This document shows positions 1,568 through 58,786 of a stretch of DNA of 64,000 bases, one piece after another. The stretch's first letter is position 1. Each line of letters begins with the position of its first letter. Under the pieces are notes generated by a model that saw only the letters and a list, made by a program, of their open reading frames with translations, searched no databases and was not told the origin of the DNA. The position numbers and the translations under genes were made by a program. Source of the DNA: Psychromonas aquimarina ATCC BAA-1526 (GTDB lineage: Bacteria > Pseudomonadota > Gammaproteobacteria > Enterobacterales > Psychromonadaceae); NCBI RefSeq assembly GCF_000428725.1, contig NZ_AUAM01000007.1, positions 62,001 to 126,000 of the forward strand, written 5' to 3'.

Positions 1568-2338
1568 TTAAGATAAAGCTTTAAACTCCACAGTGTATTT
1601 TCCTAACCCCGAATACTCAATTTCAGTACTGCAGTCAAAGTCCACTTCAACTATTCCTGCATAAGAACCACTGATAATAGCCTGCCCGGCTTTAAAGCTG
1701 GTACCGCGCTTAGTCATAAAATTGATTAACCAGTACAAAGGATTCTGCGGAAGCTGATTCGGATGCCGGCCGGCAAAAGTTTGTGTCTTATCCGCTTGCC
1801 TTACCTTGATAGAAATTTCACTGGCGGCGTAAGCTTTTGACTTATCAATCTGCGGACCGATAAACAGTCCCTGATTAACCAAACAGTCGGCAAGCTTCTC
1901 ATAAAAAGTCACCCCGCTCTCTGGTGCAAACCTGTCCTGCATCAGCTCCAGTGCCATATGGCAGGAAGCAACCGCTTCATCTATCTGCGCCTCACTATAA
2001 TCCTGCTGCTGCGCAGGTAGATCTTTACCTAATACAAAAGCGATTTCAGGCTCAATGCGTACTGTCTGATTATCAGCAAACAATGTGCAGATTTCCCCCT
2101 GCTGCACCGTCTGTGAAAAAATCGGTGCGACCACCAGCTGATTATCCGTTATCGGTAACAGACATTTCCAGCCGCCGACAGCATCATTTCGCTGCTTTAT
2201 CATCTGTTCATGAACAGATAATGCATCATCTATACAATTAGGCTGCAGTTCGCTGTTTAGACGAGGAGCTTTTGTACCGGCAGCACGGCGTTTTAATAAC
2301 TCGGCGGCGGCCTGGGAAAATTTATTACAAGTAGTCAT
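1568..2338 (-). CDS. 2-keto-4-pentenoate hydratase-like (FAH superfamily) protein
   Basis: A 256-residue protein of the fumarylacetoacetate hydrolase superfamily, closest in layout to MhpD-type 2-hydroxypenta-2,4-dienoate hydratases. These are cytosolic, divalent-metal enzymes that add water to 2-hydroxydienoates in aromatic meta-cleavage pathways. Family signs are the Glu-x-Glu metal-binding motif in RIEPEIAFVLG (about residues 95-105), the downstream ALELMQDRF block and the C-terminal GIVEVDF segment. No aromatic-degradation genes lie nearby, so the substrate is open: the gene stands alone downstream of pepB, behind the pepB terminator. A decarboxylase of the same fold is possible. Confidence 0.75.
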   Translation of the reverse strand: MTTCNKFSQAAAELLKRRAAGTKAPRLNSELQPNCIDDALSVHEQMIKQRNDAVGGWKCLLPITDNQLVVAPIFSQTVQQGEICTLFADNQTVRIEPEIAFVLGKDLPAQQQDYSEAQIDEAVASCHMALELMQDRFAPESGVTFYEKLADCLVNQGLFIGPQIDKSKAYAASEISIKVRQADKTQTFAGRHPNQLPQNPLYWLINFMTKRGTSFKAGQAIISGSYAGIVEVDFDCSTEIEYSGLGKYTVEFKALS

Positions 2339-2429
2339 AATGAAACCTTAATTGGATAAAAAATATCATACTAGCCTTTGCCGAACGGTGTAGACAGCAA
2401 AACTCTTAATAAATAATAAGTTACACGCA

Positions 2430-2457
2430 TAAAAAGGCCGCGGATAAACGCAGCCTA
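2430..2457 (-). terminator. Terminator after pepB (end of isc-pepB region)
   Basis: On the minus strand AGGCTGCG, a six-base loop and CGCGGCCT form a stem (2435-2442 with 2449-2456), followed by TTTTT. It lies about 20 bases after the pepB stop codon. Confidence 0.8.
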
Positions 2458-2477
2458 ATAAATAAACAGTAGCGCAC

Positions 2478-3770
2478 TTAGACAAACAGCATCTTACTGA
2501 TAGTGCGTACACCATGGCCTTTACCGCCCGCTGCCCATAAAGCATTTGCACTGACCTGATAACTTCCAGCCAGATCAAAATGAATCCAGCCTTTCTGCGG
2601 CTGCTGTACAAACTTAGCTAAAAATGCGGCCGCGGTTGAAGCGCCGGCCATGCCTTCACCACTATGAATATTGGCAATATCAGCAAACGGCGAACTAATC
2701 TGCTGCATATGAAACTCTTCAAAGGGTAAACGCCAAAGCTTTTCATTTTCTTGAGATGCACAGTTTGAAGCAAGTGTTACCAGCCGCTCATCCATGCTTA
2801 ACACTGTATTATAATCACGTCCGACAGCCGTTTTAGCGGCACCGGTTAATGTAGCGGCATCAATAATAGACAAAGCTTTATCTTCCTGGGCGGCAATTAA
2901 TCCGTCGGCTAATATCAGACGCCCTTCTGCATCACTGTTTAAGACTTCAACCGTTACACCGTTTTTATAGGTGATCACATCACCTAATTTAAGGGCACTG
3001 CCGCTGATCAGATTTTCAGCGCAGCACAGATACAGTTTAATACGTTTATTCAAACCGTTAACAATAGCTAATGCCAGTGCACCGGTAAGTGTTGCAGCGC
3101 CGCCCATATCACTTTTCATGGCGGCCATGCCGGCGCTTGGTTTCAGGCTGTAACCGCCGGAGTCAAAGGTAATGCCCTTACCGACTAATGCGAATGCAAC
3201 GGGTGCATGGACATCGCCTGTGGGGTTATAATCCAGCTGCAGCATACAGGGCGGACGCGAACTGCCCTTTCCAACCTGATAAATACCCTGAAAACCATGC
3301 TCTAACAAGCTGTCACCTGAGATAATATTATGTTTTATATGTAAACCTTCAGGTAAAACATGTTTTATTAAAGTAACAGCTTTATCACATAAGATCTCTG
3401 GAGACAGTGCCTGTGGCCCAAGATTAATGGTTTTACGGACCCACTCCATAATCAGTTTACGTGATGTCAGAACTTCGGCTTCATTATCCTCAATGTCACC
3501 AAAATGCACCAGAGCTCCATTTTTGGCATTGTAAAACCCCTGGCTGAATGCCCAGCGCAGCTCTGTTGTCCAAAGTTCTCCCTGCAGCTTTACCTTTTCA
3601 ATACCCATACCGTCTAGTTTTCTGGCGGCACTCTGCACCACAGAAAATGCACCAGTCGGATCGTCAATATGAATCTGAGCATGCCCTTCAGAGAAACTCA
3701 GCAGCGCATTTTTGCCCCAGCTGGAATGAGCCGTATCCGATGATAATGAAACAAAAAAATAGTCTGTCAT
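2478..3770 (-). CDS. pepB: Peptidase B, M17 leucyl aminopeptidase family
   Basis: A 429-residue cytosolic M17 metallo-aminopeptidase (E. coli PepB has 427). The C-terminal catalytic half shows the family core: VGKGITFDSGG (Lys and Asp about 198 and 203), MKSDMGGAA, and the signature NSDAEGRLILADGL at about 278-291 that supplies metal ligands and the catalytic Arg. I start at the ATG at 3768-3770, which has AAAGG eight to nine bases upstream. The longer frame would start at a TTG inside the U-tract of the preceding terminator. pepB follows iscX, as in many gammaproteobacteria, but a good terminator separates the two, so it may have its own promoter. Confidence 0.95.
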   Translation of the reverse strand: MTDYFFVSLSSDTAHSSWGKNALLSFSEGHAQIHIDDPTGAFSVVQSAARKLDGMGIEKVKLQGELWTTELRWAFSQGFYNAKNGALVHFGDIEDNEAEVLTSRKLIMEWVRKTINLGPQALSPEILCDKAVTLIKHVLPEGLHIKHNIISGDSLLEHGFQGIYQVGKGSSRPPCMLQLDYNPTGDVHAPVAFALVGKGITFDSGGYSLKPSAGMAAMKSDMGGAATLTGALALAIVNGLNKRIKLYLCCAENLISGSALKLGDVITYKNGVTVEVLNSDAEGRLILADGLIAAQEDKALSIIDAATLTGAAKTAVGRDYNTVLSMDERLVTLASNCASQENEKLWRLPFEEFHMQQISSPFADIANIHSGEGMAGASTAAAFLAKFVQQPQKGWIHFDLAGSYQVSANALWAAGGKGHGVRTISKMLFV

Positions 3771-3788
3771 ATTATTACCTTTTATCAA

Positions 3789-3818
3789 AAACAAAAACGC
3801 AGGCTAGTGCCTGCGTTT
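3789..3818 (-). terminator. Terminator between iscX and pepB
   Basis: The minus strand reads AAACGCAGGC-ACTA-GCCTGCGTTTTTG: a 10-bp perfect stem, a four-base loop and a U-rich tail. It begins about 20 bases after the iscX stop, so most isc transcripts should end here and pepB may be expressed by read-through or separately. Confidence 0.8.
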
Positions 3819-3838
3819 ATATTATTTTAAGTGTGCGA

Positions 3839-4036
3839 TTACATCTCTTCAATCCAGCACTGCTGCACCGCTTCTAATATACGTTCACTGCAGTGTTTAG
3901 GATCATCATCAAACTCTTCAAGGTTCAAAATCCATTCACGCAGATCGGTAAAACGAATTTGAGTCGGCTCCTGATCCGGATAGATATCCATTAAAGCCAA
4001 TGCTAATTCCCGGGAGTCCAGCCATTTTAAAACCAT
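3839..4036 (-). CDS. iscX: IscX, Fe-S cluster assembly regulator
   Basis: A 65-residue acidic protein (E. coli IscX has 66) starting MVLKWLDSRELALALMD and ending in the family's QCWIEE(M) motif. IscX binds iron and the IscS desulfurase and tunes desulfurase activity. The central FTDLREWILNLEEFDDDP stretch is the conserved IscS-facing acidic surface. It sits in its usual place, 68 bp after fdx, as the last gene of the isc set before a terminator. Confidence 0.95.
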   Translation of the reverse strand: MVLKWLDSRELALALMDIYPDQEPTQIRFTDLREWILNLEEFDDDPKHCSERILEAVQQCWIEEM

Positions 4037-4104
4037 CTTATCCTCCAGTATTATCTTATTCTTAACTGAGTTTATGCTGCTTTAAATATTCTGCTGGATT
4101 CAGA

Positions 4105-4443
4105 TTAATGATTCTCAGAAACGATATTCACTGTGTATTTTGGAATCTCTACCACTAAATCTTCATCTTTCACACAAGCCTGACAGCCTAAACGCGATTC
4201 CGGCTCAAGTCCCCATGCTTTATCCAGCATATCATCTTCTAACTCATCACTCTCTTCAAGAGAATCAAAACCTTCTCGCACAATCACATGACAGGTCGTA
4301 CAGGCGCATGACTTTTCACAGGCATGCTCAATACCGATCTCATTTTTCAAGGCAAGGTCTAAAATAGTTTCACCTTCAACCGCTTCAACAACCAAACCTT
4401 CCGGGCATAACTCTTCATTGGGTAAAAATATTACTTTTGGCAT
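4105..4443 (-). CDS. fdx: ISC-type 2Fe-2S ferredoxin
   Basis: A 112-residue adrenodoxin-type ferredoxin that passes electrons during Fe-S cluster assembly. The ligand pattern is complete: Cys42, Cys48, Cys51 in HACEKSCACTTC and Cys87 in RLGCQAC, the same positions as E. coli Fdx. The extra Cys46 and Cys90 are also those seen in ISC ferredoxins. The gene lies 42 bp after hscA and 68 bp before iscX, as expected for the operon. Confidence 0.96.
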   Translation of the reverse strand: MPKVIFLPNEELCPEGLVVEAVEGETILDLALKNEIGIEHACEKSCACTTCHVIVREGFDSLEESDELEDDMLDKAWGLEPESRLGCQACVKDEDLVVEIPKYTVNIVSENH

Positions 4444-4485
4444 CTTAATCGCACCTTATGCTTTTAATATATCTATTAATTTCTG

Positions 4486-6357
4486 TTAAATCTGATCTAC
4501 TGACTGGCCGGTCAGGGCCTGCTTAATCGATGCATCCATACGCAGTGATGCATAATGATCCGTCAGCTTGTCAATGGCTTCAAGCGCATCTTTAATGGCA
4601 TTAACATCGTCACCACGCCCTGTTTCGGCAAGTGTTTTAATATTATCAACAATGCTCTGATACTCGCTCTCAGACAGGAGCTGCTCACCGTCTTTTTGTA
4701 ATGCAGCTTCCAGATTTTCAATGACACGTTTTACTTCTACCTGCTGCTCAATCAGCATACGCGCCTGAATATCCTGCTGTGCAAAGGTTGTCGAATCAGA
4801 AAGCATCTCCATTACCTGAGCATCACTTAAGCCGTAGGAAGGTTTCACTTCAATATGCGCCTGCACACCAGATGATTTCTCCATTGCGCTGACACTTAAT
4901 AAACCGTCTGCATCAACCTGAAAAGTCACGCGAATATGCGCGGCACCGGCAGCCATCGGCGGAATATCCGTTAAAACAAAACGAGCCAGGGAGCGGCAGT
5001 GCTTAACCATTTCCCGCTCTCCCTGTAAAACATGAATCAGCATCGCTGTCTGACCGTCTTTAAAGGTAGTAAATTCCTGCGCCCGTGCAACTGGAATGGT
5101 GGTATTACGCGGAATCACTTTTTCAACCAGATCGCCCATGGTTTCAAGCCCTAATGACAGGGGCAGGACATCCAGCAGAAGCATTTCTGAATCGGGTTTA
5201 TTACCCACTAAAATATCGGCCTGCACAGCTGCGCCGATAGCCACCACTTTATCCGGATCAATACTGGTTAACAGATCACGTTTAAAGAACTCACTGACCT
5301 TTTCACGCACTAAGGGCACACGGGTTGAACCGCCGACCATCACCACTTGTACAATTTCATCAAGACTGACAGCGGCATCTTTAACGGCACGCTTACAGGC
5401 GCGCAATGTCTTTTTCACTAATTTTTCAATCAGCTGTTCAAAGGTGTTTTTATCAAGCAGACCTGACCAGTTAAGGTGCTGCAGTTCGATTTTCACCTGC
5501 TTCTCTGCACTTAATATCTGTTTCGCATTACGGGCGGCCTGTAATAACTCCTGCTGTAATTCCGGGCTTATCGGAGTGCAGATACCCGCCTGCTCTTTAA
5601 TCCAGTTAACAATGGTCAGATCAAAGTCATCCCCGCCAAGTGCTGAATCACCGCCGGTAGCAAGCACTTCAAAAACACCTTTATGCAGACGTAAAATAGA
5701 AATATCAAAGGTACCGCCGCCTAAATCATAAACAGCAATAAGCCCTTCCTGACCTGAATCTAATCCGTAAGCAATCGCGGCCGCCGTCGGTTCATTTAAT
5801 AAACGTAATACGTGCAGTCCCGCTAAACGGGCTGCATCTTTTGTACCCTGACGCTGCGCATCATCAAAATAAGCCGGCACGGTGATAACCACACCGTCTA
5901 ACTCCCCCTGCAGAGTCTCTGCGGCCCGGGCGCTTAATGCTTTTAAAATTTCACTGGAAGCCTGCACGGCATTAACTGCACCGCTGCGGGTTTCAATCTG
6001 CGCTAAACCGCTTTGATGCGCGCTTAGCTGGTAGGGAAGATGGGTCTTATCTAAATCCAGTAATGCCTTACCGATTAAACGTTTAACTGAAACCAGTGTA
6101 TTCTGCGGATCAGTTAACAAATATTGCTGTGCACTGGCACCAACGCTGATCGAAGTCTCGCCCTGTTCATTCAATTCTCCGTAATGCACTACTGAAGGCA
6201 GCATGTCCTGCTGATTATGATCTACTAAAGTTAAAGCTTCACCGCTTCTCACGCTGGCAACAAGGGAGTTAGTGGTGCCTAAATCGATACCGGCAGCTAA
6301 TTTGTGCTGGTGAGGAGCTGCAGATAAACCCGGCTCTGCAATTTGTAATAATGCCAT
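4486..6357 (-). CDS. hscA: HscA, Hsp70-class chaperone for Fe-S assembly
   Basis: A 623-residue DnaK-like ATPase, close to the 616 of E. coli HscA. The N-terminus [17 protein letters not shown] is characteristic of HscA rather than DnaK. The nucleotide-binding domain shows GIDLGTTNS (23-31), the [12 protein letters not shown] phosphate-2 motif and [10 protein letters not shown]; the substrate-binding domain follows from about residue 390. HscA binds the LPPVK motif of IscU, which is intact in this window, and releases the nascent cluster. It is encoded 24 bp after its J-domain partner hscB. Confidence 0.97.
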
Positions 6358-6381
6358 CGTTGATTATCCTGTTTACTAGTT

Positions 6382-6891
6382 TTAGTCGAACAATTTTTCT
6401 TCGAGCAGATCGAGTTCGATTTTAAGTTTAAGCATGAATTTTAGTTTTCTTACGCTGTCAGCAGCCGCTTCTAATTGTTTTTCCTGCAGCTGCAGTGCAA
6501 TTTCCGACTCTAAGTCCTGCACCTGCTCCTCAATATTTTCAGCAAAAGCTTCAATTTCATCTTCATCATCTTCTGTAAATGAAGCAATTGTTTCCCGCCA
6601 TTCCATCTGCTGCATTAAGAAGCTGGTATCCTGCAGGGTTCTCTGTTCTAAAGCGATATCAAGACCGTTCAGCAGCAGTAAATACTGTGCACGTAAGCAG
6701 CTGTTTTTTAAAGTTTGATAGGCATCGTTAATTTCTGTGCTTTTCTGCATAGCAGCTAGACGTTCACTGTCTGAATGCATGGCAAATTTATCGGGATGAT
6801 ATTGTTTCTGCAGTTCACGATAGGTTACAGATAATCGTGTTTGATCAACAGAAAACAGAGCAGGCAGGGAGAATAGTTCAAAGTAGTTCAA
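6382..6891 (-). CDS. hscB: HscB, J-domain co-chaperone
   Basis: A 169-residue protein (171 in E. coli) with an N-terminal J domain containing the His-Pro-Asp triad at 32-34 (YHPDKF) and a C-terminal helical bundle that docks IscU. It delivers IscU to HscA and stimulates its ATPase. It follows iscA after 88 bp, a gap containing a terminator-like hairpin that could lower hscBA expression relative to iscSUA. Confidence 0.96.
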   Translation of the reverse strand: MNYFELFSLPALFSVDQTRLSVTYRELQKQYHPDKFAMHSDSERLAAMQKSTEINDAYQTLKNSCLRAQYLLLLNGLDIALEQRTLQDTSFLMQQMEWRETIASFTEDDEDEIEAFAENIEEQVQDLESEIALQLQEKQLEAAADSVRKLKFMLKLKIELDLLEEKLFD

Positions 6892-6923
6892 AACAGTTTC
6901 CTAACGGAGTGAGTGTTAAAATA

Positions 6924-6957
6924 AAAACACCTTTATCTTAACTAAGGTTAAAGGCGT
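6924..6957 (-). terminator. Terminator-like hairpin between iscA and hscB
   Basis: On the minus strand, ACGCCTTTA (6949-6957) can pair with TAAAGGTGT (6927-6935) with one G-T pair, followed by TTTTAT. The loop is 13 bases and holds a further small palindrome. It resembles a weak or partial terminator inside the operon, downstream of iscA. Confidence 0.45.
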
Positions 6958-6979
6958 TAATATAGTGTGAAATCAATAT

Positions 6980-7303
6980 TTAAACACTAAAACTTTCACC
7001 ACAGCCGCATTCGCCGTCGGTATTCGGATTATTAAATTCAAAACCTTCATTAAGGCCTTCTTTAACAAAATCTAATTCTGTACCGTCAAGGTAAACTAAA
7101 CTTTTTTCATCAACGACGATTTTCACACCTTTATCAGTGAATACCTGATCATCATCATTAAGTACATCTACAAATTCAAGAACATAAGCCATGCCCGAAC
7201 AGCCTGATGTTTTAACCCCTAAGCGCAAACCAATGCCTTTACCGCGGTTAGCGAGGAAAGCCGCAACATGTTTTGCTGCTGGTTCTGTCATTGTGATAGC
7301 CAA
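6980..7303 (-). CDS. iscA: IscA, A-type Fe-S carrier (TTG start)
   Basis: A-type carrier with all three cluster cysteines, Cys35 in TSGCSGMAY and Cys99/Cys101 in GECGCGESF, the E. coli IscA positions. I chose a TTG start at 7301-7303: it gives exactly 107 residues as in E. coli, aligns the [10 protein letters not shown] start with the known N-terminus, and has GGAG six bases upstream. The longer reading would start at another TTG (7315) that overlaps this ribosome site. IscA carries clusters or iron to apo-proteins. It lies 105 bp after iscU. Confidence 0.95.
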
Positions 7304-7408
7304 AGTCGACTCCAATTTTTAATTTTATTTCACTAATAAAAACAACTTAATCCGCTTCAATACAGGCAGCTGATTACTCAAGCTGCAGGCATTAAAGCGC
7401 TGTTATCT

Positions 7409-7795
7409 TTATTCAGCCGTATTTTTACTTTTGTAATCATCAATCGCCGCTTTGATCGCATCTTCAGCAAGAATTGAACAGTGAATTTTTACCGGCGGCA
7501 GAGCCAGCTCGGCTGATATTTCAGTGTTGCTGATTTTACCAGCCTCTTCCAGTGTTTTGCCTTTTACCCATTCAGTCACTAGTGAGCTTGAAGCAATTGC
7601 ACTGCCGCAGCCGTAAGTTTTGAATTTAGCATCTTCAATCACACCGTTATCATCGATTTTCAGCTGCAGTTTCATTACATCGCCGCATGCCGGCGCGCCG
7701 ACCATACCTGTCGCAACAGATTTGTCATCTTTATCAAATGAACCTACGTTACGTGGGTTTTCGTAATGGTCGATTACTTTTTCGCTATAAGCCAT
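7409..7795 (-). CDS. iscU: IscU, Fe-S cluster scaffold
   Basis: A 128-residue scaffold protein, the same length as E. coli IscU. Cluster ligands Cys37, Cys63 and Cys106 with His105, and the HscA recognition motif LPPVK at 99-103, are all present. The protein builds 2Fe-2S clusters with sulfur from IscS. The gene is preceded by an unusually long 256-bp gap after iscS that contains a copy of the iscS tail. Confidence 0.97.
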   Translation of the reverse strand: MAYSEKVIDHYENPRNVGSFDKDDKSVATGMVGAPACGDVMKLQLKIDDNGVIEDAKFKTYGCGSAIASSSLVTEWVKGKTLEEAGKISNTEISAELALPPVKIHCSILAEDAIKAAIDDYKSKNTAE

Positions 7796-7953
7796 GATAT
7801 TTATCCTTTTCTCTTTTCTTTAATTTATTACGTAAAATTCAGCTTGTTATCATTGTCTTTAACTTCCAAGTAAAACCTGCATCTCACAAATATAAGAGTG
7901 CGGTTTTTCCGCTAAAGTTCAACAAAACAACTAAGGCCGGTTTTAGTGCATAC

Positions 7954-8013
7954 AACTAGTGATGCGACCACTCGATGCTGCTGATATCGATGCCTTCTTT
8001 AATACATATCCCA
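7954..8013 (-). repeat. Second copy of the iscS 3' end
   Basis: This 60-bp segment matches the end of iscS at 8050-8108 at all but two positions: one synonymous C/T change and one extra A. Read leftward it still encodes the last 14 IscS residues, [14 protein letters not shown], and a stop. It lies 36 bp downstream of the real iscS stop with no start codon of its own, so it is a direct-repeat remnant rather than a gene. Confidence 0.85.
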
Positions 8014-8020
8014 ATTAATG

Positions 8021-8042
8021 GAGAGACATATAAATGTCTCTC
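8021..8042. repeat. Perfect hairpin between the two iscS tails
   Basis: GAGAGACAT-ATAA-ATGTCTCTC is a perfect 9-bp stem with a four-base loop that fills most of the 36-bp gap between the true iscS end and its duplicate. There is no U-tract in either direction, so it is not a standard terminator. It may stabilise or separate the iscRS part of the message. Confidence 0.6.
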
Positions 8043-8051
8043 AGCTATTAA

Positions 8052-9266
8052 CTAGTGATGTGACCACTCGATGCTGCTGATATCGATGCCTTCTTTATAC
8101 ATATCCCATAACGGTGACATTTCACGTAAACGACCAATATTTTCACGAATAATTTTAACTGCGTAATCAATTTCTTCGAAAGTTGTAAAACGTCCGATAC
8201 TGAAACGAATCGAACTGTGTGCCAGCTCATCATCACGACCAATTGCGCGTAACACATATGAAGGTTCAAGGCTTGCCGAAGTACAGGCACTACCCGATGA
8301 AACCGCTAAGTCTTTAAGCGCCATTACCAGAGACTCACCTTCAACATAGTTAAAGCTGATATTGATATTACCTGCCACACGGTGCTCCATGGAGCCGTTA
8401 ACATAAACTTCTTCCATATCGCTTAAACCGTCTAATAAACGAGTACGCAGCGCCAGAAGGCGTTCATTTTCAGTCGCCATCTCTTCTTTGGCAATTCGGA
8501 AAGCTTCACCCATAGCAACTATCTGATGTGTCGCCAGCGTGCCGCTGCGCATACCGCGCTCATGTCCGCCGCCGTGCATCTGTGCTTCTAAACGAATACG
8601 CGGTTTACGGCTGACGTATAATGCGCCGATACCTTTAGGGCCGTATACTTTATGTCCTGAAAATGAGATCAGATCAACTTTCATTAACTGCACATCAATA
8701 TCTACTTTACCGGCACTTTGCGCCGCATCAACATGTAAAATGGTTTTATTAGCACGACATAACTCACCGTATGCAGCTATATCCTGAATTACACCAATTT
8801 CATTATTTACATGCATCAGACTAACCAGAATAGTATCTTCACGCAGTGCTTCCTGCAGCTGCGCAGGAGTAACGATTCCGTCCTCCTGAGGATCCAGGTA
8901 AGTCACTTCATAACCTTCACGCTCTAACTGACGACACGTATCTAACACCGCTTTATGCTCTGTTTTAGCAGTAATAATATGTTTGCCTTTTTTGCCGTAG
9001 AAGTGCGCAGCACCTTTAATAGCAAGATTATCTGATTCTGTTGCACCGGATGTGAAGACTATTTCACGCGGATCAGCATTGATTAGATCCGCAATTTGTT
9101 CACGGGCAATATCAACCGCTTCTTCCGCCTGCCAGCCGAAACGATGCGAACGAGACGCAGGGTTACCAAACTCTCCGTCCAGCGTTAAAAACTGCATCAT
9201 TTTCTCTGCCACGCGGGGATCTACCGGGGTTGTTGCAGAATAATCAAGATAAATAGGTAATTTCAT
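8052..9266 (-). CDS. iscS: IscS, cysteine desulfurase
   Basis: A 404-residue PLP enzyme, identical in length to E. coli IscS, that takes sulfur from cysteine for IscU, tRNA thiolation and other acceptors. The PLP lysine is Lys206 in [10 protein letters not shown] and the catalytic cysteine is Cys328 in [14 protein letters not shown]. The C-terminus [11 protein letters not shown] is the IscU-contact tail. I start at the ATG 9264-9266 ([10 protein letters not shown]); GGAG lies six bases upstream, whereas the longer GTG start would overlap that ribosome site. It follows iscR after 27 bp. Confidence 0.97.
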
Positions 9267-54326: not shown

Positions 54327-54354
54327 TGCATATATGAAATTTGTTATATATGCA
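54327..54354. promoter_or_regulatory. Candidate ArsR operator before arsC-arsR
   Basis: TGCATATAT (54327-54335) and ATATATGCA (54346-54354) are perfect 9-bp inverted repeats with a ten-base spacer, centred 40 bp before the fusion gene. AT-rich dyads of this kind are usual for ArsR proteins, and a related palindrome precedes the GAPDH gene. Confidence 0.6.
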
Positions 54355-54379
54355 GTTAAATTTAAATAATCAGGCATCT

Positions 54380-55132
54380 ATGAAAAAACGCTTACTCTTT
54401 CTCTGTACAGGTAATTCAGCACGCTCGCAGCTTGCCGAAGCCCTGTTTCGACATTTATGTGCTGACAGTTTTATTGTTGCCAGTGCAGGCACAGCTCCAA
54501 GCGAGATAGATCCCCGTGTCTTTGAGGTATTAAAAGCCAATGCGGTCAGCAGCGAAGGGTTAAAAAGCCAGTCAGTTGAACAGCTGCAGTATGAACACTT
54601 TGATTATGTGATTACTTTATGTGATAAAGCGAACCATGAATGCGCTCTGTTTTCAGACTCACAAGCCTTAATCCACTGGGATTTTCCCGATCCTAAATAC
54701 CTTAACGGCATACAGCCTTTTATTGATACCTTTAACGGTTTAAAAACACGCATCTCTTTATTTTTAATGCTTAACGGCCAGGAATCGGCAGATCCGTTCG
54801 GCCCCGTTGAGCTGTTCAAAATTATGAGTGATCCGCTGCGTTTAAAAGTACTGATGCTGATTGAAGATGAACAGTCTCTCAGCGTTGGAGAGCTCGTCAG
54901 CGTACTTGAAGTCAGTCAGCCTAAAGTTTCCCGCCATCTGGCTTTACTGCGTGAGAGCGGCATTTTACAGGTAAAAAAACAGGGACTCTGGGTTTTTTAC
55001 AGCCTCTCTAAACAGCTTCCTGTGTGGATACGTCACACACTAGCCACGGTTCGTAACGGTAACCCCGGTATCATTAACCGCGAAAAAATTAAACTTCACC
55101 AGATTCCTGACAGAAAACAACTTCAGCAGTAA
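54380..55132 (+). CDS. ArsC-ArsR fusion: arsenate reductase domain plus ArsR repressor domain
   Basis: A 250-residue fusion. Residues 1-140 form a low-molecular-weight phosphatase-fold arsenate reductase with the P-loop CTGNSAR (9-15), the redox pair Cys81 and Cys88 (LCDKANHEC) at S. aureus ArsC-like positions, and WDFPDP. Residues 143-250 are an ArsR winged helix (VELFKIMSDPLRLKVLMLI; recognition helix SQPKVSRHLALLRESGIL). The ArsR part has no cysteine, so the usual As(III) thiolate site is missing. I start at the ATG 54380, where the ArsC motif begins; an in-frame ATG at 54341 lies inside the operator. It heads an arsenic operon. Confidence 0.9.
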   Translation: MKKRLLFLCTGNSARSQLAEALFRHLCADSFIVASAGTAPSEIDPRVFEVLKANAVSSEGLKSQSVEQLQYEHFDYVITLCDKANHECALFSDSQALIHWDFPDPKYLNGIQPFIDTFNGLKTRISLFLMLNGQESADPFGPVELFKIMSDPLRLKVLMLIEDEQSLSVGELVSVLEVSQPKVSRHLALLRESGILQVKKQGLWVFYSLSKQLPVWIRHTLATVRNGNPGIINREKIKLHQIPDRKQLQQ

Positions 55133-55211
55133 TAATCTCTTCTAAATCTGCGGCTTAAACTCCGCACAGCTATGCTGACAGCTTGCCGTTCAAAACCAAA
55201 TATACGGAAAA

Positions 55212-55236
55212 CCATATATATGGATTTACATATGTA
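55212..55236. promoter_or_regulatory. Tandem palindromes before the ars GAPDH gene
   Basis: CCATATATATGG (55212-55223) and TACATATGTA (55227-55236) are two perfect palindromes 49-73 bp before the GAPDH start. They share the ATATATG core with the dyad before the ArsC-ArsR gene, so control by the same ArsR is likely. Confidence 0.55.
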
Positions 55237-55284
55237 ACTTGAGTATCTATACTGACTTCACGACAGGTTAACGGGAAACAGATA

Positions 55285-56286
55285 ATGACAGTTAAAATAG
55301 GTATAAATGGTTTTGGACGTATCGGCAGATTAGCGCTTCGCGCTTCTTTTGACTGGGATGATATTGAGTTTGTGCAGATCAATGATGCTGCCGGAGATGC
55401 AGCTGCATTAGCACACCTGCTTGAATTTGATTCTATCCAGGGGCGCTGGCATCATCAGGTCAACAGTGACGGTAATGATATTGTTATCGGCACTACTCGA
55501 ATCAAGTGCAGCAGCGAGCGGGATTTAGACGCCGTAGACTGGAGTGCCTGTGATGTGGTACTTGAATCTACAGGTGTACACCGTCAGGTAGATTTATTAC
55601 AAAAATATTTAGATCAAGGCGTACAGCGTGTAGTGGTTTCAGCACCGGTAAAAGACGACAGCGTATTAAATGTCGTTGTGGGTGTAAATGCTCACCTGTT
55701 TGATAAAAGCATCCACCGCATTATCACGGCAGCTTCCTGCACCACCAACTGTATTGCTCCGGTTGTAAAAGTGATTCATGAAAAAATCGGTATTGAACAT
55801 GCTTCTTTCACTACCATTCATAATTTAACTAATACACAGACCATTCTTGACGCACCGCATAAAGATCTGCGCCGGGCAAGATCCTGTGGTATAAGTTTAA
55901 TTCCAACCACCACCGGCTCTGCGAAAGCGGTTATTGATATTTTCCCTGAGCTTGAAGGCAAAATTGACGGTCATGCAGTGCGGGTCCCCTTAGCGAATGC
56001 CTCGTTAACCGATATCATTTTTAATGTCTCCCGTGATACCGATATAGATGAAGTTAATGCTTTATTAAAAGAAGCTTCACAGGGTGAGCTGGCCGGAATT
56101 CTAGGCTTTGAAACACGCCCTCTGGTATCAATCGACTACAAAGGCGATCAACGTTCGACGGTTGTTGATGCATTATCCACTATGGTAGTTAATAAACGTA
56201 TGCTGAAAATCTATGCCTGGTACGATAACGAAATGGGTTACGCGGCCAGAACGGCTGAGTTAATCCGCACCGTCGGTCAGCCGTAA
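55285..56286 (+). CDS. Glyceraldehyde-3-phosphate dehydrogenase of the arsenate detoxification pair
   Basis: A 333-residue GAPDH with the NAD motif INGFGRIGRLALRA at the start, catalytic Cys152 in SCTTNC and the ATTHNLTNTQ-type His block; LRRARSCGISLIPTTTGSAKAV is typical of GAPDH genes that travel with arsJ. In this pathway the enzyme uses arsenate in place of phosphate to form 1-arseno-3-phosphoglycerate. Assignment to arsenic metabolism rather than central glycolysis rests on position between the ArsR fusion and ArsJ, and on the upstream palindromes. Confidence 0.92.
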   Translation: MTVKIGINGFGRIGRLALRASFDWDDIEFVQINDAAGDAAALAHLLEFDSIQGRWHHQVNSDGNDIVIGTTRIKCSSERDLDAVDWSACDVVLESTGVHRQVDLLQKYLDQGVQRVVVSAPVKDDSVLNVVVGVNAHLFDKSIHRIITAASCTTNCIAPVVKVIHEKIGIEHASFTTIHNLTNTQTILDAPHKDLRRARSCGISLIPTTTGSAKAVIDIFPELEGKIDGHAVRVPLANASLTDIIFNVSRDTDIDEVNALLKEASQGELAGILGFETRPLVSIDYKGDQRSTVVDALSTMVVNKRMLKIYAWYDNEMGYAARTAELIRTVGQP

Positions 56287-56355
56287 CAGCTGCAGTCTTA
56301 ACAAAAAATATTACAGACTCCGCCCCGGCGGGTGTCTGTTAGCGAGTATAAATTG

Positions 56356-57576
56356 ATGCTTCAGAAATTATCAGCCCTTAACAAAGATGTGCAGCAGTAC
56401 ATGCTGGTCACCTTTAATTACTGGAATTTTACCCTGACCGACGGCGCCCTGCGCATGTTAGTGGTTTTACATTTTCATCAGTTAGGTTACAGCCCGCTGC
56501 AGATTGCCTCTCTGTTTCTTTTTTATGAGTTTTTCGGCGTAGTGACCAACCTGATCGGCGGCTGGCTGGGAGCGCACTTAGGCTTAAATAAAACCATGAA
56601 TATCGGTTTAGCCATGCAGATAGCGGCTTTAATAATGCTGGCTGTACCCTCTGAATTTTTAACTGTGATCTGGGTGATGCTTGCGCAGGCTCTTTCCGGC
56701 ATTGCTAAAGATCTTAATAAAATGAGTGCTAAAAGCGCAATTAAAACCTTAGTTCCCCCGGATCAAGAGGGGGTTTTATATAAGTGGATTGCCGTACTGA
56801 CCGGCTCTAAAAATGCATTGAAAGGCTGTGGTTTTTTTCTCGGCGGCGTTTTACTGGCGGTAATCGGCTTTCAGGGGGCTGTACTGGCAATGGCGGCGAT
56901 CTTAACGGCAGTCTTAACCTTAAGCCTTTTGTTATTAGGCAAAGATATCGGCAAAGCCAAAAACAAAGTGAAATTTTCACAGATATTTTCCAAAAGTCGA
57001 CCTATTAATATCCTTTCCGCAGCCCGTATGTTCCTGTTCGGCGCACGTGATATCTGGTTTGTAGTTGCTTTACCTCTCTACCTCGGCAGCGTGTTCGGCT
57101 GGGCTCATTCATGGGTAGGCGGTTTTCTGGCTGTCTGGGTAATTGCCTATGGGTTTGTGCAGAGCCTGGCTCCTAAAATAACCGGAAAATCGGCGGCAGT
57201 GCCCCCGGACGGCAAGTCAGCAATGAACTTAACGGCACTGTCAGCAGTTATCACAGTTTTTATCGCATTGGCTGTCCAGTATTCCTGGCTTCCTGAGTTA
57301 TCAATCATAGCCGGCTTATTAATTTTCGGCGCCCTGTTTGCACTGACTTCATCACTGCACTCTTATCTGATTGTCAGTTATGCCAGAGGCGACGGTGTTT
57401 CACTTGATGTAGGTTTCTATTATATGGCTAATGCCATGGGCCGCTTAATCGGCACCATTTTATCAGGCTGGTTATATCAGTCTTACGGTATGGCGGCCTG
57501 TTTATGGTTTTCCTGTGCTTTTTTAGCAGCAGCGGCGCTGATATCTACCGCATTACCCCGTCATCAGCAAATTTAA
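56356..57576 (+). CDS. arsJ: ArsJ, organoarsenical efflux permease (MFS)
   Basis: About 406 residues with 11-12 membrane helices, a major facilitator of the ArsJ type: ALNKDVQQYMLVTFNYWNFTLTDGALRMLVVLHF at the N-terminus and LSGIAKDLNKMSAKSAIK after helix 4 are characteristic. ArsJ exports 1-arseno-3-phosphoglycerate made by the adjacent GAPDH, which then breaks down to arsenate outside. I prefer the ATG at 56356; a GTG at 56332 is possible but lies in a GC-rich hairpin. A bidirectional terminator follows. Confidence 0.93.
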   Translation: MLQKLSALNKDVQQYMLVTFNYWNFTLTDGALRMLVVLHFHQLGYSPLQIASLFLFYEFFGVVTNLIGGWLGAHLGLNKTMNIGLAMQIAALIMLAVPSEFLTVIWVMLAQALSGIAKDLNKMSAKSAIKTLVPPDQEGVLYKWIAVLTGSKNALKGCGFFLGGVLLAVIGFQGAVLAMAAILTAVLTLSLLLLGKDIGKAKNKVKFSQIFSKSRPINILSAARMFLFGARDIWFVVALPLYLGSVFGWAHSWVGGFLAVWVIAYGFVQSLAPKITGKSAAVPPDGKSAMNLTALSAVITVFIALAVQYSWLPELSIIAGLLIFGALFALTSSLHSYLIVSYARGDGVSLDVGFYYMANAMGRLIGTILSGWLYQSYGMAACLWFSCAFLAAAALISTALPRHQQI

Positions 57577-57587
57577 CAAAGCGCATA

Positions 57588-57620
57588 AAAACAGGGGACA
57601 TAATGTTCCCTGTTCCTTTT
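57588..57620. terminator. Bidirectional terminator between arsJ and serA
   Basis: ACAGGGGAC-ATAAT-GTTCCCTGT forms a 9-bp stem with one G-T pair; T-runs lie to the right (CCTTTTT) and, on the other strand, to the left (TTTTTA). It separates convergent genes. Confidence 0.8.
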
Positions 57621-58786
57621 TATAACGAACGCACAGCAATAACATGTTCAACTTTACGGATCGCTTCAATCAGCTCTTCCTGCGGTTCGCTTTCCAGATC
57701 GATAATGTTATAACCGATATTATCCCGGCTTTTATTCATCATATCGGTCACATTGACATTTTCATCCGCAAGAATAGAGAGCACATTACCTAATACCCCG
57801 GCGACATTTTCATTAACAAAGGTGATCCGGTACGGGGTATTTCTTTCCAGGCTGATCGGCGGGAAATTAACTGAGTTTTTAATATTACCGTTTTCAAGAA
57901 ACTCAATTAACTGATTACAGGCCATTATCGCACAGTTATCTTCAGCCTCTTCGGTACTTGCACCAAGGTGAGGCATAGGGATCACCTCGGAGCGGTGAAT
58001 CATGGCGGCCGTTGGAAAGTCTGTTGCAAAATGAAGCAGCCTGCCGCTGTCCAGCGCTGCAGTAACAGCCTGCGCATCACACACTTCACCGCGGGCAAAG
58101 TTAAGCAGACAGGCTCCCTCTTTGATATGTGCCAGTGCTTCACTGTTGATCAGGTTTTTAGTCGCTTCCATCGCCGGGATATGCAGAGTAACGTAATCAC
58201 AGCGTGCCAGCAGTGAGTGCAGGTTTTCCATTTTCTCAATTTTGCTGGATAAACGCCAGGCGGCATCAATTGAGATAGCCGGATCATAACCGACCACATT
58301 CATACCTAAATCTATACCCATATTAGCAACATTAGCGCCGATCGCTCCCAGGCCGACAACCCCTAATGTTTTAGCTGCAATTTCACTGCCTTTAAACTGT
58401 TTTTTAGCCTGCTCAAGCACACCTCCTATTTCAGCATCAGAAATATCAGTTAAACCGCGGCAGTGGTTAATGCCTTCAACAGCCCCGCGGGAACAAAGCA
58501 GCATGGCTAACAGTACCAGTTCTTTAACCGCATTGGCATTAGCACCCGGCGTATTAAAAACCACAATGCCTTTCTCTGAGCATTTTTCAACGGGGATATT
58601 ATTAACCCCCGCCCCGGCTCGGGCAACTGCTTTAACTGAATCCGCTAAAGGCTCATCATGCAGTTTAAAACTGCGCAGCACCAGCGCATCCGGCAAACTA
58701 AGCGTACTCGCAACTTCATAGTTATCACGGCTGAAATTATCCAGGCCGATACTGGCAATCTGATTATAAGTTCTAATTTGAAACAT
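57620..58786 (-). CDS. serA: D-3-phosphoglycerate dehydrogenase with ACT domain
   Basis: A 388-residue 2-hydroxyacid dehydrogenase: Rossmann motif LGVVGLGAIGANVANMGIDLGM (about 140-160), substrate and catalytic Arg/Glu/His region with LNFARGEVCD and MPHLGASTEEAEDN (catalytic His), and a C-terminal ACT domain (about 315-388). The length and ACT layout fit the SerA type that makes 3-phosphohydroxypyruvate for serine. It stands alone, convergent with arsJ. Both arsJ-GAPDH and SerA touch the 3-phosphoglycerate node, which may be coincidence. The 286-bp gap to 59072 holds nothing I can name. Confidence 0.88.
   Translation of the reverse strand: MFQIRTYNQIASIGLDNFSRDNYEVASTLSLPDALVLRSFKLHDEPLADSVKAVARAGAGVNNIPVEKCSEKGIVVFNTPGANANAVKELVLLAMLLCSRGAVEGINHCRGLTDISDAEIGGVLEQAKKQFKGSEIAAKTLGVVGLGAIGANVANMGIDLGMNVVGYDPAISIDAAWRLSSKIEKMENLHSLLARCDYVTLHIPAMEATKNLINSEALAHIKEGACLLNFARGEVCDAQAVTAALDSGRLLHFATDFPTAAMIHRSEVIPMPHLGASTEEAEDNCAIMACNQLIEFLENGNIKNSVNFPPISLERNTPYRITFVNENVAGVLGNVLSILADENVNVTDMMNKSRDNIGYNIIDLESEPQEELIEAIRKVEHVIAVRSL

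What the first reader, a model, noticed from the sequence alone, without database searches (positions are those of the whole stretch)
54327..57576. ArsC-ArsR fusion whose ArsR domain contains no cysteine, driving a GAPDH-ArsJ operon
Seen: residues 143-250 of the fusion form an ArsR winged helix without a single Cys, while the fused ArsC domain keeps its P-loop Cys9 and the Cys81/Cys88 pair. Known: classical ArsR proteins sense As(III) through thiolates (for example ELCVCDL), and GAPDH with ArsJ exports pentavalent arsenic as 1-arseno-3-phosphoglycerate. Inference: sensing has moved to the ArsC half, either by its redox cysteines binding As(III) or by its catalytic state, so a reductase may double as sensor. 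No arsenite pump is in the window, which makes an enzyme-as-sensor reading more attractive.
Basis: partly seen in the sequence, partly recalled or inferred. Interest (0 to 1): 0.7.

Follow-up and report, generated by a model that had tools for sequence, protein, structure and literature searches.

The report
Arsenate repressor that senses through enzyme
A marine bacterium controls its arsenate-export genes with a repressor that has lost the usual arsenic-binding cysteines but is fused to an intact arsenate-reducing enzyme, and comparison with relatives suggests that the enzyme half has become the arsenic sensor.

Summary
The 250-aa ArsC-ArsR fusion (54380-55132) has cysteines only at 9, 27, 81 and 88, none in the ArsR half, and precedes gapdh-arsJ. 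Relatives extend the case. (1) Of 290 distinct fusions sampled, all 125 lacking the full ArsR CxC motif keep ArsC Cys9/81/88 and Arg15; the 8 with a broken ArsC set all keep CxC (p 0.011, not corrected for kinship). (2) CxC goes with an arsenite pump: with Acr3 downstream on the same strand 32 of 32 fusions have CxC, without it 20 of 59. (3) The 61 unfused ArsRs aligned from Vibrionaceae gapdh-arsJ loci keep thiols, and the same operator dyad lies upstream of 60 of 61. (4) Both halves are under purifying selection. Against: the tree needs only four changes of CxC and three of the ArsC set, and pair tests on it are not significant. Eleven fusions have CxC and no Acr3 in the locus. The genome, though not the window, encodes Acr3 and a separate ArsC. 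Best reading: the ArsC half senses arsenate, probably through its catalytic or redox cycle. ArsR/ArsC fusions are known; ten literature searches listed no test of where they sense.

The parts
54380..55132 (+). ArsC-ArsR fusion gene, 250 aa (an upstream in-frame TTG would add 13 aa; relatives support ATG 54380)
54380..54763 (+). ArsC half (residues 1-128), low-molecular-weight phosphatase / thioredoxin-type arsenate reductase fold
   Evidence: PF01451; pI258 ArsC, D. indicus ArsC2; 8p5n, TM 0.87 by target length
54404..54406 (+). Cys9, P-loop nucleophile of C-X5-R (Arg15 follows)
54620..54643 (+). Cys81 to Cys88, resolving cysteine pair
54800..55075 (+). ArsR winged-helix half (residues 141-232), no Cys
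54881..54889 (+). Residues 168-170 (S-V-G), the place of the CxC arsenite motif in other fusions and many ArsRs
54330..54349 (+). Operator dyad 1 (12 of 14 positions), inside a perfect 9-bp inverted repeat at 54327-54354; overlaps a promoter-like site at 54341-54370
55200..55219 (+). Operator dyad 2 (14 of 14), the only exact match in the 5.53-Mb genome
55216..55235 (+). Operator dyad 3 (13 of 14), 16 bp after dyad 2; overlaps the -35 of a promoter-like site at 55225-55253
55285..56286 (+). ArsJ-associated glyceraldehyde-3-phosphate dehydrogenase, 333 aa
   Evidence: NF033735, NF006512
56332..57576 (+). ArsJ, MFS exporter (GTG start uncertain; the profile begins at residue 21)
   Evidence: NF033734
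57590..57614 (+). Terminator-like hairpin after arsJ

Best explanation
The fusion is the repressor of its own gene and of gapdh-arsJ, and its arsenic sensor is the ArsC half. SHOWN by sequence and comparison: the two domains, the ArsC catalytic set (Cys9, Arg15, Cys81, Cys88, Asp104), the absence of thiols in the ArsR half, operator dyads at both promoters, and reciprocal retention of thiols across relatives. INFERRED: the ArsR half binds the dyads as a dimer and represses. Arsenate enters the ArsC P-loop, is attacked by Cys9 and, on turnover, leaves a Cys81-Cys88 disulfide. One of these states (arsenylated or oxidised) changes the ArsC redox segment and so pulls the ArsR half off DNA, and thioredoxin resets it. 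GAPDH and ArsJ then export As(V) as 1-arseno-3-phosphoglycerate (function of that pair from the literature; PMC9601151 argues for export of free As(V) in V. cholerae). In relatives with an arsenite pump in the operon, the ArsR thiols stay and the ArsC half is free to decay.
For: Reciprocal pattern over 290 distinct fusions: CxC present, 157 intact and 8 broken ArsC sets (Cys9, Cys81, Cys88, Arg15); CxC incomplete or absent, 125 intact and 0 broken. Eight of 23 same-genus genomes have a fusion hit. Two of the eight, the window genome and G572, have a Cys-free fusion with gapdh-arsJ and no Acr3 in the locus. The other six have FUSION>Acr3 with CxC; three of those six have lost ArsC catalytic residues and a fourth (L189) has a split frame. 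Same-strand downstream Acr3: CxC 32 of 32; none: 20 of 59. The 61 unfused ArsRs aligned keep 2 or more Cys. Operator upstream of 14 of 15 fusions, 15 of 15 gapdh genes in those loci and, out of sample, 60 of 61 unfused ArsRs. dN/dS 0.053 (ArsC) and 0.082 (ArsR) against G572. A Cys-free fusion sits after pstSCAB (L183) and a CxS one follows arrAB (L184), both arsenate or phosphate settings. The genome has a separate glutaredoxin-type ArsC, so the fusion need not be the cell's reductase.
Against: The tree needs only 4 changes of CxC and 3 of the triad. Over random pairings of 13 independent pairs differing in Acr3, CxC goes the same way in 2.5 on average, the other way in 0.3 and does not differ in 10.2; sign test not significant. 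Eleven of 52 CxC fusions have no Acr3 in the locus, and 5 of 39 without CxC do. The catalytic Asp104 is missing in 7 of the 125 fusions without full CxC, as in 7 of 165 with it, so 'intact' covers Cys9/81/88 and Arg15 only. Of the 8 broken rows two are 99% alike and two 84%. The unfused V. cholerae ArsR governs an arsenate-inducible operon although no As(III) production was found (PMC9601151, passages), so an ArsC half is not required for an arsenate response. Repression, ligand and allostery are untested. The AlphaFold model has pTM 0.57, so domain packing is unknown.
Confidence: 0.5

Rival explanations
1. The ArsC half is the sensor, but of arsenite: As(III), made by this or the separate ArsC, is held by Cys9/Cys81/Cys88, a thiol site that replaces the lost CxC. 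Catalysis is irrelevant.
For: Three invariant thiols in 140 rows. An arsenite-bound structure of pI258 ArsC exists (1lju, listed).
Against: Arg15 is kept in all 125 fusions without full CxC and Asp104 in 118 of 125; both serve arsenate chemistry rather than thiol binding (recalled). The operon exports As(V), not As(III). The genome's Acr3 lies beside another, Cys-bearing ArsR-like ORF.
Confidence: 0.17
2. The ArsR half senses through a non-thiol site, for example the conserved C-terminal helix (His219, Arg225, Asn233, Glu235, Lys236), with arsenate, 3-phosphoglycerate or a metal as ligand; the ArsC half is only a tethered enzyme.
For: His219, Arg225, Gly227, Asn233, Glu235 and Lys236 are conserved in 96% or more of 71 Cys-free fusions; all but Glu235 (not scored as specific) occur in 18% or less of 165 CxC fusions. 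The known sites of SmtB/CzrA lie in this helix (recalled).
Against: The same His219, Arg225 and GNP..IN.EK residues occur in CxC-bearing P0094, so they are not tied to Cys loss; the 165 CxC rows are also dominated by one lineage (search seeded with L190). It does not explain why the ArsC Cys and Arg15 stay whenever CxC is gone.
Confidence: 0.15
3. No change of sensor: the fusion just co-produces a reductase with a repressor that is relieved otherwise (a second regulator, titration or heterodimers with another ArsR).
For: Fusions also occur with CxC and intact ArsC (157 of 290), so fusion by itself does not mean sensing by ArsC. Other ArsR-like genes exist in the genome.
Against: The dyad at the gapdh promoter is the only exact match in the genome. 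Unfused ArsRs in this operon keep thiols. ArsC is kept intact although another ArsC is present.
Confidence: 0.12
4. A relic: the ArsR half is a non-responsive or decaying repressor.
For: The arsenite motif is gone.
Against: dN/dS 0.082 in the ArsR half against G572, recognition-helix residues conserved in 97% or more of 71 Cys-free fusions, a well-supported clade of such fusions and operators kept at its genes.
Confidence: 0.05

Closest known systems
Classical ArsR/SmtB arsenite repressors (R773-type, ELCVCDL)
   Same: Winged-helix fold, dyad operator at the ars promoter; HTH_5 and NF033788 cut-offs passed
   Different: No thiol in the ArsR half; fused behind an ArsC
Thioredoxin-coupled ArsC (S. 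aureus pI258; D. indicus ArsC2, 8p5n/8p6m)
   Same: CX5R P-loop, Cys pair and Asp; Foldseek TM 0.84-0.90 by target length
   Different: Far below the pI258 equivalog cut-off (74 vs 174 bits); carries a DNA-binding half
GAPDH-ArsJ arsenate export (P. aeruginosa DK2; V. cholerae var operon, PMC9601151)
   Same: gapdh-arsJ under an ArsR-type regulator
   Different: V. cholerae uses an unfused ArsR, reported with E-to-K and C-to-A changes in its As(III) motif, and adds VarH; the window operon has a fusion and no VarH between its genes
ArsR/ArsC fusions in print (L. ferriphilum, Microbacterium, Sinorhizobium in PMC6205960; Actinobacteria clusters C4/C7 in PMC6514093; L. ferriphilum arsRC in PMC4443643)
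   Same: The two domains on one chain; PMC4443643 measured arsRC transcripts after arsenite shock and draws ArsRC as both ArsR and ArsC
   Different: The passages seen test no DNA release and no sensing site, and L. ferriphilum arsRC sits with arsB. Domain order there not checked (L. ferriphilum recalled as ArsR first)
ArsRM of Brevundimonas (PMC10190100, abstract and outline seen)
   Same: ArsR fused to an arsenic enzyme, binds its own promoter
   Different: Methyltransferase; the abstract reports an As(III)-binding site

Membership tests
ArsR/SmtB repressors | ArsR-type winged helix | tested here: met
   PF01022 48.2 bits (cut-off 22), NF033788 78.9 (55)
ArsR/SmtB repressors | Operator dyad at the controlled promoters | tested here: met
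   by comparison only, no binding data
ArsR/SmtB repressors | Thiolate arsenite site in the ArsR fold | tested here: not met
   No Cys in residues 89-250
ArsR/SmtB repressors | Effector-dependent release from DNA | not testable with these tools
   Needs gel shift or reporter
Thioredoxin-type arsenate reductase | CX5R P-loop, two further Cys, catalytic Asp | tested here: met
   Cys9, Arg15, Cys81, Cys88, Asp104
Thioredoxin-type arsenate reductase | Curated equivalog cut-off TIGR02691 | tested here: not met
   74 bits vs 174.3
Thioredoxin-type arsenate reductase | Arsenate reduction with thioredoxin | not testable with these tools
   Enzyme assay needed
GAPDH-ArsJ arsenate export | Adjacent ArsJ-associated GAPDH and ArsJ | tested here: met
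   NF033735 543 vs 450; NF033734 606 vs 400
GAPDH-ArsJ arsenate export | Arsenate resistance and efflux | not testable with these tools
   Needs phenotype
ArsC-ArsR fusions in arsenite-pump operons | CxC in ArsR half with Acr3 in the operon | tested here: not met
   SxG, no Acr3 in the window

The most novel reading that the evidence does not exclude
A one-component arsenate sensor that reads enzyme turnover: an arsenate reductase domain converts As(V) into its own Cys81-Cys88 disulfide, and that redox state, not bound metalloid, releases the ArsR half from DNA. The regulator is thus specific for pentavalent arsenic and matched to an As(V)-only export pathway. It arose by stepwise loss of the arsenite thiols while ArsC was held intact, whereas sister lineages with arsenite pumps took the opposite path.
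Probability: 0.35. Interest if true: 0.82.

Novelty: new variant of a known kind. Interest (0 to 1): 0.62.

Why it matters
How cells that export arsenate without reducing it sense arsenate is open: PMC9601151 says its ArsR probably senses As(V) and that more research is needed. This family offers natural pairs, some with arsenite thiols and a dead reductase, some with no thiols and a live-looking reductase, on a shared operator, so the location of the sensor can be tested directly. If the enzyme is the sensor, it would be a one-component arsenate switch and a starting point for a biosensor that tells As(V) from As(III).

Tried and rejected
'Simply inactive protein' was rejected on dN/dS and clade-wide conservation. 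'A quirk of one sequence' was rejected: 71 of 290 fusions are Cys-free in the ArsR half. 'No arsenite pump at all' was rejected: Acr3 is on another contig. Tying Cys loss to fusion alone was rejected: 165 of 290 fusions sampled keep CxC. Tests on trees: fusion against Cys-free (one independent pair, no difference), CxC against Acr3; none reached significance, for want of independent events. Counting operator copies genome-wide showed no excess over the reversed-pattern control (3 sites vs 6, one strand); only their position is informative. The dyad is not universal: no hit upstream of 8 of 42 fusions and 7 of 31, among them the Cys-free L183, L225 and L251 and the gapdh-fusion-arsJ loci L222-L224; none in L252, V. 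campbellii. A search of solved structures with the V. campbellii MFS neighbour gave nothing. The monomer AlphaFold model cannot show domain coupling (pTM 0.57).

Rows dropped: one search aligned 61 of 63 unfused ArsRs (L080 2333-2677 and L061 7320-7658 lacked the N-terminal motif; L002, from the window's genome, was left out). One search thinned 203 rows to 112. One search dropped 5 duplicates and 6 gapped rows of 301. One search left out L189 (split frame). G870 was not fetched (half match). The Vibrionaceae loci number 15 fused and 61 unfused of the 80 fetched; L003 and L081 showed no regulator ORF in the scan, L026 and L032 carry the fusion on the other strand and no other ArsR, and L063 carries both and is counted among the 61. 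Locus lengths differ: L182, one of the eleven CxC loci without Acr3, is only 4,940 bases.
Full report
WHAT IS THERE. The gene at 54380-55132 encodes 250 aa. Residues 6-126 match the low-molecular-weight phosphatase/ArsC family and 151-197 the ArsR helix-turn-helix, both above the Pfam cut-offs. Cys occur at 9, 27, 81 and 88. Downstream are an ArsJ-associated GAPDH and ArsJ, both above curated cut-offs, then a terminator-like hairpin at 57590-57614. AlphaFold2 on a 24-row alignment gives mean pLDDT 90.4 but pTM 0.57, so each domain is well modelled and their packing is not. Foldseek's best hits are Deinococcus indicus ArsC2 (8p5n, with arsenate; 8p6m) and S. aureus pI258 ArsC.

THE ORGANISM. 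The nearest protein in the database, 94% identical, is named Psychromonas ossibalaenae (P0002). Its longest contig has the same length (149,734) as the G572 contig, in a genome that the tool places in the window's genus. The window is therefore probably from Psychromonas (inference).

CONSERVATION. In 140 fusion rows Cys9, Cys81 and Cys88 are never substituted (137, 139 and 139 of 140, remainder gaps). ArsR position 168 is Cys in 54, position 170 in 20, and 76 of 140 have no Cys in the ArsR half. The nearest relatives (Psychromonas, Photobacterium, several Vibrio) read [ST]V[GST]; Endozoicomonas and similar CVS or CVN; Marinobacter, Rheinheimera and others CVC or CVY. In a tree of 112 ArsR halves, 31 fusions without Cys (one of them, L015, with a single Cys) form one strongly supported clade; P0088, also Cys-free, lies apart, next to P0094 with CVC.

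THE UNFUSED CONTROL. Eighty ArsJ loci from named genomes were scanned for regulators. The 61 unfused ArsRs aligned have at least two Cys each, with conserved columns C18 (56 of 61), C29 (45), C90 (59), C111 (57) and C112 (49). The 15 fused regulators in the Photobacterium operons have none or one. Photobacterium ganghwense has both kinds, L044 fused and L070 unfused.

THE OPERATOR. A dyad ATATRYG-N6-CRYATAT, often twice at a 16-bp offset, was read by eye from fused loci and then counted at 12 or more of 14 positions: upstream of 14 of 15 fusions and 15 of 15 gapdh genes in those loci, with 3 hits elsewhere in 198,336 bases. In unfused loci, which were not used to define it, it lies upstream of 60 of 61, with 8 hits elsewhere in 787,815 bases. 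In the wider surveys it is upstream of 34 of 42 fusions and 24 of 31. In the window it lies at 54330-54349, 55200-55219 and 55216-55235. With up to 2 mismatches the window has 7 matches against 3.27 expected, a number that 3 of 100 shuffles reached. In the whole genome with at most one mismatch there are three sites, two of them these; the only exact one is at gapdh. Both candidate promoters overlap a dyad, but promoter-like sites are no more frequent here than in shuffles (8 vs 6.9). Fused and unfused regulators thus seem to read the same DNA and differ in the sensory part.

CONTEXT. Fusions with neighbourhoods came from the order of the window (40 loci), the order of G162 (31 loci), two plasmids (L091, L092), 18 Vibrionaceae loci and the window. 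Of the 91 used, those with Acr3 downstream on the same strand have CxC in 32 of 32, the rest in 20 of 59. Counting Acr3 anywhere in the locus, 41 of 46 against 11 of 45. Cases against: L162, L175, L177, L178, L182, L092, L232, L235, L244, L245 and L250 have CxC and no Acr3; L014, L063, L179, L221 and L226 have Acr3 nearby without CxC.

RECIPROCAL LOSS. In the window's own genus three fusions beside Acr3 have lost ArsC residues: L190 and L191 (Cys9 and Cys81 replaced, Cys88 to Asp, Arg15 to His) and L180 (Cys9 to Ser). In another family, L188 has lost Cys9, Arg15 and Cys81. A second protein search seeded with L190 brought the set to 290 distinct ungapped fusions, drawn from two best-120 lists, the loci and the window: CxC 157 intact and 8 broken; one Cys 36 intact; none 89 intact; no broken set among the 125 without full CxC (Fisher p 0.011, rows not independent). 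'Intact' means Cys9, Cys81, Cys88 and Arg15. Asp104 is absent in 7 of the 125 and in 7 of the 165. Among the 8 broken rows P0123 and L191 are 99% alike and P0125 and P0163 84%. The tree needs 4 changes of CxC and 3 of the triad; the three triad changes are all in fusions with CxC and Acr3. The direction of change is inferred, and the pair tests are not significant.

SELECTION. Against G572, dN/dS is 0.053 in the ArsC part and 0.082 in the ArsR part (one pair).

OTHER SETTINGS. A Cys-free fusion (L183) follows pstSCAB (PstB, PstC and PstS confirmed by profile; PstA by position), and a CxS fusion (L184) follows arrAB, the respiratory arsenate reductase. In the Pseudomonas and Methylophaga plasmids opened (L089, L090) the match is two adjacent genes, ArsC then ArsR with LCVC, followed by a second ArsC, Acr3, ArsH, a phosphatase, GAPDH and ArsJ, a plausible unfused forerunner.

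MECHANISM AND LIMITS. The data favour a sensor in the ArsC half. They do not separate arsenate binding, catalytic turnover and arsenite capture by the triad. Retention of Arg15 (125 of 125) and mostly of Asp104 (118 of 125) leans towards arsenate chemistry. The genome's own Acr3 beside a Cys-bearing ArsR-like ORF and its separate glutaredoxin-type ArsC suggest that arsenite handling is run elsewhere. V. cholerae shows that an unfused ArsR can serve an arsenate-inducible operon (PMC9601151: abstract, outline and passages seen), so the fusion is one solution, not the only one.

LITERATURE. Ten searches (one search was rejected) in the held open-access library. Fusions are reported as sequence features in PMC6205960 and PMC6514093 (passages seen). 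PMC4443643 (passages seen) measured L. ferriphilum arsRC transcripts after arsenite shock and draws ArsRC as both ArsR and ArsC, with no binding test in those passages. The hits in PMC3954881 are gene orders, not fusions. PMC6947025 and PMC5930303 (passages seen) describe gapdh-arsJ systems; the passages mention no fusion. Other listed papers were seen as listings only. No test of where an ArsC-ArsR fusion senses turned up. The paper on GAPDH-ArsJ by Chen et al. 2016 is not held and is known here only through citations. SmtB/CzrA site positions and the details of the pI258 ArsC redox cycle are recalled.

CHANGES ON RE-CHECK.

Noticed in passing
L183 (G519:C17), 5634-6386 with pst genes to 10381: Cys-free ArsC-ArsR fusion placed directly after pstS-pstC-pstA-pstB on the same strand, possibly tying arsenate sensing to phosphate uptake.
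   Followed up: partly
L184 (G396:C1), 2155-6384: Fusion (CxS) directly after arrA-arrB, the respiratory arsenate reductase.
   Followed up: partly
L190, L191, L180, L188: Fusions beside Acr3 whose ArsC half has lost catalytic residues: a natural ArsC-dead set.
   Followed up: yes
L222, L223, L224: Gene order gapdh-fusion-arsJ, with the regulator between enzyme and exporter; no dyad found upstream of the fusion.
   Followed up: no
L252 (V. campbellii), 6481-8744: Cys-free fusion divergent from an unclassified MFS transporter, no dyad; possibly another arsenical exporter.
   Followed up: partly
L089 4992-6260; L090 4992-6266: Unfused ArsC-ArsR gene pair plus a second ArsC; the first ArsC, the one matched by the fusion, may be a separate sensor subunit.
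   Followed up: no
window 57620-58786 (-): ORF that reads like D-3-phosphoglycerate dehydrogenase (name from recall, no profile run), convergent with arsJ; may be coincidence, though 3-phosphoglycerate is the carrier of exported arsenate.
   Followed up: no
L026, L032, L063, L179: Distant fusions (SxG motif, 3 other Cys in the ArsR half) divergent from gapdh-arsJ operons, two of which (L063, L179) also carry an unfused ArsR: two regulators at one locus.
   Followed up: no
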